Shown here: positions 58,373 through 62,051 of the stretch, piece by piece | How the letters are laid out: each line of letters opens with the position of its first letter | How positions within the stretch are numbered: the first letter of the stretch is position 1 | Assembly: GCA_020055645.1 (NCBI GenBank) | Contig: CM034549.1 | Location: 31,705,930 to 31,769,929, forward strand | DNA: 64,000 nucleotides | From: Tomocerus qinae | Lineage: Eukaryota; Arthropoda; Collembola; Entomobryomorpha; Tomoceridae | Direction of reading: 5' to 3' | Program-made: the position numbers and the translations under genes | The notes under the pieces: model-generated | The model's database searches: none | The model's input: only the letters and a program-made list of their open reading frames with translations | Told to the model about the DNA's origin: nothing

Positions 58373-58380
58373 CCTATATC
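58373..58380 (+). repeat. left target-site duplication of the P-like element
   Basis: CCTATATC, identical to 62044-62051. An 8-bp duplication is the hallmark of P-element insertion. Confidence 0.92.
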
Positions 58381-58833
58381 CAACGTGAATAGAAATCATG
58401 GCAACCCTTTTACCCTTTCCCCATACAACGTGAAGACAATAGAACATTTTGCCCTCTTTCTGCAGCCAGTTTGGAATCATTAGGACATTTACCTTAGGGG
58501 AAAACTGGGTGCAGTAGGACTAGTCTTTGGTATACTGCAAATCCTCCAAGATTGAACTGAGAAAGTTTATTTGTCACTGCGAATAGTATTATTCAGTATA
58601 ATGGCAAGTTGTGTGATCAATTTCTGCCTGAACAATCAGCGAAACATCAAATACAATGGCAAACCGCATGTCACTTTCCACAGATTCCCTAAAAATGAAG
58701 TCATGAAAAAGAAATGGATATCTATTTGCAAAATTACAAATAACGATCCTCGTTACTTGTGTAATGCTAAGGTATGCTCGGAGCATTTTCTTCCGAAGGA
58801 CTTTCAAGCTTATGGACGTACTATGACTTTAAC
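58381..58833 (+). repeat. left long terminal inverted repeat of the P-like element
   Basis: It pairs with 61589-62043 read in reverse complement. It is identical for the first 93 bp, then has scattered substitutions and a few small indels. It includes the 5' flank of the transposase and nearly all of its THAP exon, ending at about codon 78. Confidence 0.9.
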
Positions 58834-61268
58834 CAAGGAAGCTATTCCAACACAAAAAATTCCGAGTTAGCTTTGAAATAAAAATGATAATAAATTATGG
58901 TGACCTCAAATATTCATATCTAACCTAATATTCTACATTCATACATGATTACAAAATTATAGGAAAGAGTAAAGAAAGAATTCTGTTAGACAAAATACAG
59001 ACACTCTCAGGCAAAATAGAAAAAATAGCTAAGGAAAATAGCAAGCTGAAACTGCAGCTGGAGGAATCTGAAAAGATGTTATCTAAGCTATTCTCCCCCG
59101 TACAAATCAATATGCTGAAAAATAATATATCAAAAGTAAACTGGACAGCTGCTGAGATATCAAAATCTATACTTTTGAAATGCTTGTCGCCAAAAGCATA
59201 CGAGTTCTTGAGAACAGAGTGGAAGTTGCCGATCCCGTGCCCAAGAACAATAGAAAGGTATAGTGATAAACTTTTTAAGCAATAAATGTGATAGACTCCA
59301 TAATTTATGCATTAGATTTCCCTGCTCTTCTAGACTACCAAATAAACACTAAAATAAATAATGCATTGTAAGTAACACACTGAATTGTGATAAATATTAT
59401 TTTGAATAGGTGGGTTACAGATGTGGACTTTAGTCCAGGGATTTTACACTCCATTTTGAATGTTCTACAAAAAAAATATGAAGATGTACCATACAGAAAT
59501 AGAAGTTGCGCCATTGGTTTCGATGAAATGTCTGTAGATAGTTATCTATGCTACGATCCTAAAGATGACAAAATATTAGGACCACATAAAAAGCTACTAG
59601 TAATTGCCATCAGAGGGATATATGATGAATGGAAACATCCCATTTATTACAATTTCGACACAAATCTAACTAGTACGATATTGAATGAAGTCATTACAGA
59701 AATTCAACGCGCGGGTTTAAATGTAGTGGGTATGAGTCTTAAAAATTACTGAACTGAATTAAAAAATTTATATAAACTTACATAAATGTCATTTTTCATA
59801 CGTTTTAGGCATGGTTAGTGATTTAGCTCCAACGAACAGGGGATTATGGGCTAATTACGGGAAAATTACTGAAGAGAAACCATACATCTTAAATGTGGTA
59901 ACGGGAGCTCCCATTTGGATATTTGCGGACTTCCCGCATCTACTCAAGCTATTTAGAAACAACATATTTGATCATGGATTCCTACTAACTAATGGCCATA
60001 CAATTTTGCTGTCAGATTTTCAAGAATTGGTGAATGCAACTAAGTCTGAGCTAAGCACTTCGTGGAAAGTTTGTCAGAAGCACTTAGATGTTGTGGGTAA
60101 AGAACGAATGAACGTTAGATATGCTTTCGAAACACTTTCGCGGACGACAGCTCAAAACTTTGAAAAATACTTATCAAAGCCTGAAGTTGCAGAGTTTATC
60201 AGACTTATTAATGACGCTGCGGATATACTGAATAGTCGTTTTCCAAACAACAAAAATCCACTGAAGTCAGGCTATGGAGAACATTTGGTTCATCAAGATA
60301 TGGTGCTTGACAAATTTGCAGCTGAAATCCGAGAAATGAGAGCCTTCGATAAAAGATCAAAAAGTGGAATCAAGAAAAGTATGATGCCTTTCCAGAAGGG
60401 TTTACTTATAACCATTGCTTCTCTTCGAGGTCTTTATCATCAACTGAATCAAGATTCTTTCAAAACTAAATACATACTTACCGCACGGCTCAATCAGGAT
60501 TATCTGGAAAATATTTTTAGTTCGATTAGAGGTCTTGGAGTGTTCAACCAGAACCCTTCACCAATAGAATGCAAATTTCGTCTTAAAAGCTTGGCCCTAA
60601 CAAAGTGTTTAAGTCTGTCGAAAAAAACATCAGTTAATTCAAGTAAAAATGACAATGGATTGATTCAAAGTGACATTCTACATTGTTTGAGAGAGCGCTC
60701 CGTCAACACAGCAATTTCTATTGAAAATAAATGGTCGTTTGAGGCTGCAGAAGCTTTCGTTGTATTAGATGTTCAAGAATACAACGATGAAATCGAAGAA
60801 ATTAACGCAGAAAATTGGGAGGAGTTTTGTGACTCGCTTACTGTTTCAGAGGAAACGGAATTTGGAGGTCAGGAGTACATTTGTGGATATCTTGCATCCA
60901 AACTTAAGAAACATTTTCCAAATCTAGAAATGGTAGAAGCAGGGAGAAATCCACCTAGTTGGACTCAGGAAATTTCTAGATATAACCTGACAATTCCTTC
61001 ATATGAGTTTCTGAATGCTTTCCGTAAAATGAATAAGATATTTATTCAGTTCCATTCTTCAGACAAGTGGAACATTAACAGAAAAGCAGGAGTTATGAAG
61101 CATTTGGAAACTGCACTCGGAGAGAAATATCCTGAACTTCCCACAAAGGTGATCTCCCTGTTTGTTCGAACAAGAACTCACATTAGAATAAAATACCTGA
61201 ACTCACTGATTAAAGGAAATCGCAGTCAAGCCGCATATATGCAACGAGTTCTTCGTAGCAATGTGTAG
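58601..61268 (+). CDS. P-element-type transposase with THAP domain
   Basis: Exons 58601-58865, 58963-59257, 59410-59729 and 59809-61268 join in phase through GT-AG introns to 779 residues (Drosophila P is about 750). P transposase cuts and pastes its element using GTP as a cofactor. The N-terminus is a C2CH THAP zinc finger that binds DNA (Cys4, Cys9, HRFPKN, Trp48, Cys66, His69, EAIPT). Next comes a charged, leucine-containing coiled coil at about 90-125, then a helix-turn-helix-like stretch with KCLSPKAYEFLR and TIERW. The RNase H-like core has candidate catalytic acids Asp225 (GFDEM), Asp298 (VSDLAPTNRGLW) and Glu527 (DYLENIFSSIRG); their spacing is close to what I recall for Drosophila P. 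The start is the first ATG, directly before the THAP signature. No inactivating change seen. No canonical polyadenylation signal was found after the stop. Confidence 0.93.
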
Positions 61269-61588
61269 TACACATTTACTTACTGTAAAAATCTTCTATA
61301 CCTTGCAGAGTTAACAGTTATTCATTGGTGAGTAGTAATTGTGTTTACGAGTTTCTATTTTGTGTTGCATTGCATTCTTATTTGTTTATATTTCCTTGCA
61401 TTGCTAGTAAATGCTTTGTGTTTTAGTCAAAACTTGTAGTTTCATAATCCTAGTTGTACTACTTTCTTACTTGTTAGCTATATAATAGGATAATAGGCTA
61501 TGTGCAAACTTGGAGGAAACGGAGGACACGAGATGTCAGATGTGAGATGAAACTTTCTCCTAAACATTAGTTAGTCATTTTGCAAATA
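61269..61588 (+). other. 3' flank of the transposase gene inside the element
   Basis: AT-rich, about 320 bp between the stop codon and the right inverted repeat. No AATAAA and no open frame of interest seen. Confidence 0.5.
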
Positions 61589-61824
61589 GTTAAGGTCATA
61601 GTACGTCCATAAGCTTGAAAGTCCTTGGGAAGAAACTGCTCCTCCGAGCATACCTTAGCATTACACAAGTAACGAGGATCCTTATTTGTAATTTTGCAAA
61701 TAGATATCCATTTCCATTTCATGACTTCATTTTTAGGAAACCTGTGGAAAGTGACATGCGGTTTGCCATTGTAATTGATGTTTCGCAGATTGTTCAGACA
61801 GAAACTGATCACACAACTTGCCAT
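61567..61824 (-). pseudogene. inverted, decayed THAP exon copy in the right terminal repeat
   Basis: Read on the minus strand, an ATG at 61824 opens a frame that matches the THAP exon of the transposase almost throughout (MASCVISFCLNN, HRFPKN, PRYLCNAKVCSE). A three-base insertion and a substitution turn CSEHF into CSEEQF, removing the fourth zinc ligand. The match stops at 61589, so the EAIPT box and the donor site are missing and the frame soon ends. It is the right-end partner of the left repeat, not an independent gene. Confidence 0.85.
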
Positions 61825-62043
61825 TCTACTCAATAATATTATTCGCAGTGTTAAATTAACTTCCTCAGTTCAATCTTGGAGAATTTGCAGTGTACCAAAG
61901 ACTAGTCTTACTGCACCCAGTTTTCCCCTTAGATGATGTCCTAATGATTTCAAACTGGCTGCAGAAAGAGGGCAAAATGTTCTATTGTCTTCACGTTGTA
62001 TGGGGAAAGGGTAAAAGGGTTGCCATGATTTCTATTCACGTTG
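61589..62043 (-). repeat. right long terminal inverted repeat of the P-like element
   Basis: Reverse complement of 58381-58833 with a few indels; ends with ATTCACGTTG, the inverted form of the left end. Confidence 0.9.
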
Positions 62044-62051
62044 CCTATATC
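62044..62051 (+). repeat. right target-site duplication of the P-like element
   Basis: CCTATATC, identical to 58373-58380. Confidence 0.92.

What the first reader, a model, noticed from the sequence alone, without database searches (positions are those of the whole stretch)
58373..62051. Intact, probably autonomous P-element-like transposon with perfect 8-bp target duplication
The element has matching ends, an exact CCTATATC duplication and an uninterrupted four-exon transposase of 779 codons with a THAP finger and three candidate catalytic acids at spacings like those of Drosophila P. Most P-like copies outside dipterans are broken, so a complete copy with identical outer 93 bp of repeat suggests recent activity in this genome.
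Basis: partly seen in the sequence, partly recalled or inferred. Interest (0 to 1): 0.75.

Follow-up and report, generated by a model that had tools for sequence, protein, structure and literature searches.

The report
Intact P-type transposon, coding-exon terminal repeats
This is a complete, probably working relative of the fruit-fly P element in an arthropod-like genome that holds many P-type elements, and its unusual feature is that its long end repeats have swallowed most of the first coding exon, which specifies the DNA-binding domain of its own transposase.

Summary
Window 58381-62043 is a 3663-bp P-superfamily transposon flanked by a perfect 8-bp duplication (CCTATATC). Its four-exon, 779-aa transposase frame is uninterrupted, matches the Drosophila P transposase (6p5a, E 6.8e-72) and aligns D225/D298/E527 with catalytic D230/D303/E531.

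(1) The terminal inverted repeat is about 455 bp, not 93, and includes 233 of 264 nt of the THAP exon; the inverted right copy lacks its zinc-ligand His and C-terminal part. (2) A second full-length insertion, 0.36% diverged inside, is broken by a 2.2-kb insertion and a 1-nt deletion. Of 19 compact non-autonomous copies, 18 have perfect TSDs. The outer 93 bp is identical at 34 of 40 scored places (two are the window's own), so it does not date this copy. (3) The genome has many P-type elements (582 first-look candidates, 58 scored).

Of 11 complete P-type elements compared, six have most of the detected THAP exon inside the TIR. TIR length varies from 279 to about 720 bp within one sister family, three copies of which carry AAA-ATPase gene fragments. 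New variant of a known kind, moderate interest.

The parts
58373..58380 (.). left 8-bp target-site duplication CCTATATC
62044..62051 (.). right 8-bp target-site duplication CCTATATC
58381..58833 (+). left terminal inverted repeat, 453 bp (outer 93 bp identical to the right end, the rest diverged); contains the 5' region, the ATG and most of the THAP exon
61589..62043 (-). right terminal inverted repeat, 455 bp, 93.4% identical to the left arm
61588..61824 (-). inverted copy of the THAP exon inside the right TIR (aa 1-78, 91%); zinc-ligand His lost, C-terminal THAP part absent
58381..58439 (+). end motif CAACGTGAA at position 1, repeated at position 46 (58426); candidate recognition repeats, mirrored at the right end
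   Evidence: D10, D14; function inferred
58601..58865 (+). transposase exon 1 (THAP domain, C4-C9-C59-H62)
58866..58962 (+). intron 1 (donor GTTAGC, non-consensus by recall; the same hexamer at the aligned place in 6 of 8 related copies)
58963..59257 (+). exon 2 (P-element HTH)
59410..59729 (+). exon 3 (RNase H N-terminal part; catalytic D225 codon at 59522-59524)
59809..61268 (+). exon 4 (D298 codon at 59820-59822, GTP-binding insertion domain, E527 codon at 60507-60509, C-terminal domain, stop)

Best explanation
The element is a complete, probably autonomous cut-and-paste transposon of the P superfamily. Shown from sequence: matched ends, an 8-bp TSD, a four-exon transposase frame with the P-transposase domains and catalytic acids, and relatives inserted elsewhere with the same ends and 8-bp TSDs. 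Inferred from homology: the spliced transposase binds DNA through its THAP domain, pairs the ends, excises the element with GTP as cofactor, and inserts it with an 8-bp stagger. The same protein (or a near-identical predecessor) probably mobilises the roughly 1.8-kb non-autonomous copies that share its ends. The long TIRs are best read as ends that recruited the neighbouring 5' region and THAP exon, then exchanged sequence by gene conversion or template switching during gap repair. The exchange is visible as a tract in L002; its direction and the repair mechanism are inferred. The right-hand THAP copy in the window is a by-product and cannot form a normal THAP finger.
For: Domains and homology: PF05485, PF12017, PF21787, PF21788 and PF21789 above cut-off; 6p5a E 6.8e-72. 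Frame and introns: (junctions 2 and 3 recur in L002, L030 and L032; junction 1 in L002, L029 and L031). TSD and ends. Purifying selection between the window and its 91%-identical relative L030: dN 0.048, dS 0.276 over 634 codons, 144 skipped. Second insertion L002: TSD GTCATGAC on both sides, interior 10 substitutions and 1 deletion in about 2.75 kb. Non-autonomous copies: 18 of 19 with both ends within 6 kb have a perfect 8-bp TSD; closest pair 0.23%, median of all 153 pairs 1.98%. Conversion: at 17 of 19 columns from 100 to 285 where the window arms differ, the L002 right arm carries the window-left state; at 16 of 17 columns from 318 inward it carries the window-right state. Growth of ends: sister-family TIRs of 279, 367 and about 676-723 bp, and L044 and L050 keep an inner remnant of an older right TIR (86 and 331 bp) between the transposase and the new right end.
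Against: No RNA, no transposition assay and no population data. The only close full-length relative among the scored candidates is broken, so there is a single intact copy and no intact sibling. The intron-1 donor is non-consensus. No AATAAA or ATTAAA signal was found between the stop and the right end, only AGTAAA. Non-autonomous copies differ by about 2% at the median, so much of the amplification is not brand new. No empty site was found: the joined flanks match only the window's own flanks, in a search that skips common words. Short TIRs in L049 and L053 could also come from loss rather than be an early stage.
Confidence: 0.85

Rival explanations
1. Structurally intact but inactive relic: the copy looks complete yet is silenced or carries a missense or cis defect, and the non-autonomous copies were moved by extinct donors.
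For: Single intact copy; the nearest full copy is broken; non-autonomous median divergence 1.98%.
Against: Frame intact, catalytic acids present, perfect TSD and ends; interior only 0.36% from a second insertion.
Confidence: 0.3
2. The duplicated THAP exon is functional: the right end acts as a second inward promoter that makes a THAP-only repressor or antisense/hairpin RNA that limits transposition.
For: The right TIR repeats the 5' region and the ATG; in the sister family the right THAP frame is open in L044, L045 and L050.
Against: In the window the right copy has lost the zinc-ligand His and its C-terminal THAP part. In the non-autonomous copies only 6 of 19 right arms keep the frame to the end of the copied THAP part, and 11 of 19 left arms keep a long frame, each with an altered C-terminus; in 3 right and 2 left arms no start was recognised. 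So there is no sign of selection on it; the open frames of the sister family may simply hitch-hike on conversion with the left arm.
Confidence: 0.12
3. A domesticated host gene rather than a mobile element.
For: Purifying selection between copies.
Against: Perfect TSD and TIRs, a second insertion at another locus, many non-autonomous derivatives with the same ends.
Confidence: 0.02

Closest known systems
Drosophila melanogaster P element
   Same: THAP, HTH and split RNase H with GTP-binding insertion; four coding exons; D/D/E at almost the same spacing; 8-bp TSD
   Different: TIR about 455 bp instead of 31 bp; most of the THAP exon lies inside the TIR; 3.66 kb instead of 2.9 kb; a distant relative by the tree
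Galileo (P superfamily, Drosophila)
   Same: Long Foldback-like TIRs (about 0.3-1.2 kb and more); TIR growth by recruiting internal sequence is described for D. mojavensis; in D. willistoni the 3' TIR overlaps the end of the coding segment by 69 bp (passages seen in PMC3573991 and PMC4168063)
   Different: Here the 5' coding exon (THAP), not the 3' coding end, is in the TIR, with an intact transposase; the Galileo copies described in those passages have no intact transposase; 8-bp TSD here (Galileo's 7 bp is recalled, not from a call)
Anopheles gambiae P elements and P-MITEs
   Same: Several coexisting P subfamilies, 8-bp TSDs, a few complete masters and more numerous non-autonomous copies with a non-P interior (passages seen in PMC1562414)
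   Different: TIRs there are 27-31 bp
Zebrafish Pdre2 / THAP9
   Same: P-type transposase with THAP, 8-bp TSD, reported active outside Diptera (PMC10983969, start of abstract and passages seen)
   Different: 13-bp TIRs with distant 12-bp subterminal repeats

Membership tests
P superfamily | transposase homologous to P transposase (RNase H split by GTP-binding domain) | tested here: met
[quoted passage not shown]
   (PF05485, 55 bits); ligands C4, C9, C59, H62 read from the sequence
P superfamily | three catalytic acids aligned to D230, D303, E531 | tested here: met
   D225, D298, E527; residues of the reference from PMC7776569, passage seen
P superfamily | 8-bp target-site duplication | tested here: met
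   window and L002 exact; 18 of 19 compact non-autonomous copies
P superfamily | GTP-dependent excision and integration with 17-nt 3' overhangs | not testable with these tools
   described in PMC7776569, passages seen; needs biochemistry
canonical P element (31-bp TIR type) | short 31-bp TIR | tested here: not met
   TIR 453/455 bp
[quoted passage not shown]
   binding sites were not sought beyond noting the repeated CAACGTGAA motif
Galileo subgroup | long Foldback-like TIRs | tested here: met
Galileo subgroup | transposase groups with Galileo | not tested
   no Galileo protein was available to compare; the tree holds only this genome and Drosophila P

The most novel reading that the evidence does not exclude
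In this P lineage the terminal repeats repeatedly grow inward to take in the 5' region and THAP exon, so that the right end becomes a second, inward-facing promoter plus DNA-binding-domain exon. In the sister family this right end faces a captured AAA-ATPase gene (L044, L045, L050), so these P elements could act as a machine that transduces host genes and splices a THAP domain onto them.
Probability: 0.12. Interest if true: 0.7.

Novelty: new variant of a known kind. Interest (0 to 1): 0.42.

Why it matters
Intact P-type elements with living-looking families are needed to learn how P transposases work beyond flies and vertebrates. A TIR that contains a coding exon links the DNA substrate and the protein-coding sequence. 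It makes testable how Foldback-like long ends arise (recruitment plus conversion), and how P elements might capture host genes and attach a THAP domain to them.

Tried and rejected
Truncated-sibling idea: one search suggested L002 lacks its left 105 bp. One search placed a 93-bp end 2.2 kb away and one search showed a nested insertion of about 2.2 kb with the TSD intact, so the truncation reading was dropped. Empty site: the joined 300+300-bp flanks match only the window itself. Selection on THAP in the non-autonomous arms: frames are shifted in many arms, so the repressor idea is kept only as a rival. Captured gene inside the non-autonomous copies: no gene was recognised; part of their interior matches other dispersed places in the genome. 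Viral carrier: one scan of viral contigs gave 3 pattern matches, none encoding a relative by tblastn. Host identity: a COX1 frame in the invertebrate mitochondrial code was read from a nuclear contig; I could not name the order, so 'arthropod-like' is from recall. Literature: no paper describing a P element with the THAP exon inside its TIR turned up in searches. That covers only the held open-access library. Apart from one abstract with outline and one introduction read in full, I saw listings, starts of abstracts and passages.

Full report
What is there. The window segment 58381-62043 (3663 bp) is bounded by the exact direct repeat CCTATATC. The two ends are inverted copies of each other over 453/455 bp at 93.4% identity, with the outer 93 bp identical. 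Inside lies a gene with three GT-AG introns (97, 152 and 79 bp) whose spliced frame has 779 codons and no stop. The conceptual protein carries THAP, P-type helix-turn-helix, both RNase H parts and the GTP-binding insertion domain above Pfam cut-offs; the C-terminal P-element model scores just under its cut-off (21.8 against 22.6 bits). Its best solved relative is the Drosophila P transposase, 6p5a (E 6.8e-72, residues 97-558). D225, D298 and E527 align with D230, D303 and E531, the catalytic residues named in PMC7776569 (passages seen); the spacings are 73 and 229 against 73 and 228.

Splice model. The splice sites were looked up at the aligned places in eight related copies. All six agree in L002. 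Those of introns 2 and 3 recur in L030 and L032. Those of introns 1 and 2 recur in L029, and both sites of intron 1 in L031, whose second acceptor has lost its AG. The unusual first donor hexamer GTTAGC is found in six of the eight (L002, L029, L031, L032, L033, L034); L030 and L036 differ. Several sites could not be aligned in L029, L030, L032, L033, L034 and L036. In L029, 6 of the 19 listed indels fall in introns 1 and 2, and the others mostly disrupt exons, because that copy is broken.

Copies in the genome. G000 has 334 Mb in 115 contigs. A DNA search gave 199 candidates, of which 40 were scored, so counts are lower bounds. The only other near-identical full copy among them is L002 on C2: 10 substitutions and one 1-nt deletion (in exon 4, breaking the frame) over about 2.75 kb of interior, which is 0.36% by substitutions. 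It looked truncated at first, but its outer left end lies about 2.2 kb away behind a nested insertion, and both ends are flanked by GTCATGAC. L030 is 91% identical, and the window/L030 comparison gives dN 0.048 and dS 0.276 over 634 codons (144 skipped, one stop excluded), so the transposase evolved under purifying selection. L029 and L032 are decayed. Window against L002 shows 13 changed codons, 10 of them non-synonymous, too few to interpret.

Non-autonomous copies. Twenty-one short copies were fetched (L009-L028 and L035). Nineteen have two recognisable ends within 6 kb, and 18 of those 19 have a perfect 8-bp TSD; L018 has none. L011 has only one recognised end, and the two ends of L019 lie 8.4 kb apart without an exact 8-bp match. 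The older 87%-identical copy L031 also has two ends but no matching TSD. Other old stretches (L033, L034, L036-L039) were fetched and show one end only in the piece held. Among the 18 copies longer than 1.3 kb, the 153 pairwise divergences have a median of 1.98% and a minimum of 0.23%; L035 is rearranged and aligns badly. Their interior of about 800 bp matches the element only in pieces of about 35-45 bp, and part of it matches other dispersed places. The outer 93 bp of the window is identical at 34 of 40 scored places among 155 candidates, the window's own two ends included. Identity of the outer ends is therefore a family property and says nothing about the age of this one insertion.

The exon inside the repeat. 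The left arm contains 233 of 264 nt of the THAP exon, and the right arm carries the inverted copy. That copy begins MASC..., still scores as THAP (33.9 bits, model positions 1-56 of 87), but its zinc-ligand His is replaced and its C-terminal part is missing. In the non-autonomous copies, 6 of 19 right arms keep the frame to the end of the copied THAP part, and 11 of 19 left arms keep a long frame with an altered C-terminus; no start was recognised in 3 right and 2 left arms. There is thus no evidence that a second THAP protein is maintained.

How the long ends arise. At 19 columns between 100 and 285 where the two window arms differ, the right arm of L002 has the window-left state at 17; at the other two it has the window-right state, which its own left arm also has. 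From column 318 inward it has the window-right state at 16 of 17 columns, with one gap. I read this as a conversion tract from left to right arm in L002. In the sister family (about 52% amino-acid identity over exon 4, ends CAAGGTTTATTAAAACC, 8-bp TSD) TIR lengths are about 279 (L053), 367 (L049), 678 (L044), 676 (right arm of L045; its left arm has a gap) and 723 bp (L050). Between the transposase and the new right end, L050 keeps a 331-bp and L044 an 86-bp inner remnant of an older right TIR; L045 shows none there. This fits ends that grew inward, taking first none or part and then all of the THAP exon, although L049 and L053 could instead have lost sequence. I infer template switching or recombination during repair, as discussed for Galileo in the passages seen.

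Survey. Eleven complete P-type elements of this genome were compared. At least 168 nt of the detected THAP exon lies in the TIR of six (window, L044, L045, L050, L054, L055), 13 or 67 nt in two (L048, L049) and none in three (L043, L047, L053), though L043 has one further eroded inverted block inside the THAP exon. In L045 and L050 the left THAP match itself is partial. Not in this count: L046 and L052, for which no TSD-bounded two-ended structure was found in the fetched stretch, L002, and the older broken copies. The tree of 14 rows puts the window with L030, then L043+L046, then the sister family; the 2-exon elements L047, L048, L054 and L055 form a separate clade (100/99), and Drosophila P is a long branch outside (midpoint root).

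The host is rich in P elements. A protein search gave 582 first-look candidates, of which 58 were scored with 75 matches. By my count of that table, 12 matches have an open_frame_aa value of at least 700, no stop within the match and an alignment of at least 600 residues. Four of these were read and have ATG-started frames of 766, 762, 671 and 732 aa (L047, L048, L054, L055). The novelty of finding one intact copy is accordingly reduced.

Mechanism, with shown and inferred steps. Shown: structure, homology, TSDs, multiple insertions, exchange tract. Inferred: expression, promoter position, splicing, THAP binding to the ends, GTP-dependent excision and insertion, and cross-mobilisation of the non-autonomous copies. 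I put 0.85 on a complete P-superfamily element with autonomous structure, and about 0.6 on present-day competence.

Comparison. It meets the features of the P superfamily that could be tested. It is not a canonical 31-bp-TIR P element. It resembles Galileo in its long ends, but membership in the Galileo subgroup was not tested. A coding overlap of 69 bp at the opposite end (3' coding end) is described for D. willistoni Galileo as a unique trait (PMC4168063, passage seen). I found no report of the THAP exon in the TIR in searches of the held library.

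Noticed in passing
L044:5345-6900, L045+L051, L050 (C5:22.74 Mb, C4:0.17 Mb, C1:81.45 Mb): Three sister-family P elements with different 8-bp TSDs carry, on the minus strand and downstream of the inward-facing right-end THAP exon, fragments of an AAA-ATPase gene (AAA_lid_3; ATAD1/Msp1-like is recalled). A fourth place (C5:22.70 Mb) matches 97% but was not fetched. Similar DNA at C1:99.37-99.40 Mb (74-96%) looks like the source locus. Suggests gene capture by a P element; the frame is broken in L044, and a 264-aa frame is open in L050.
   Followed up: partly
L047:2040-5889, L048:2459-5970, L054:1628-5480, L055:1028-5069: The 2-exon P clade makes 9-bp target duplications (4 of 4 with symmetric ends), whereas the elements of the 4-exon clade make exactly 8 bp (7 of 7, and the 18 compact non-autonomous copies with a TSD).
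   Followed up: partly
G000:C2, about 3047155-3049366 (L056): Another mobile element of about 2.2 kb with 35-bp inverted ends is inserted in the left TIR of L002.
   Followed up: no
L040 (C1:36670928-36672268): A full-length COX1 frame and an ND2-like frame (ND2 by recall) in the invertebrate mitochondrial code inside the largest nuclear contig: a nuclear mitochondrial insertion or an assembly join.
   Followed up: no
L013:2332-2828: A 497-bp derivative made of one TIR plus a 38-bp stub of the other end has a perfect TSD (GGTAGCAC). Either 38 bp at one end is enough for transposition or the loss came after insertion.
   Followed up: no
L036 and L037 (C1:83.64 and 83.60 Mb): Two stretches 37 kb apart carry the same old P copy with almost the same match pattern, suggesting a segmental duplication.
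   Followed up: no
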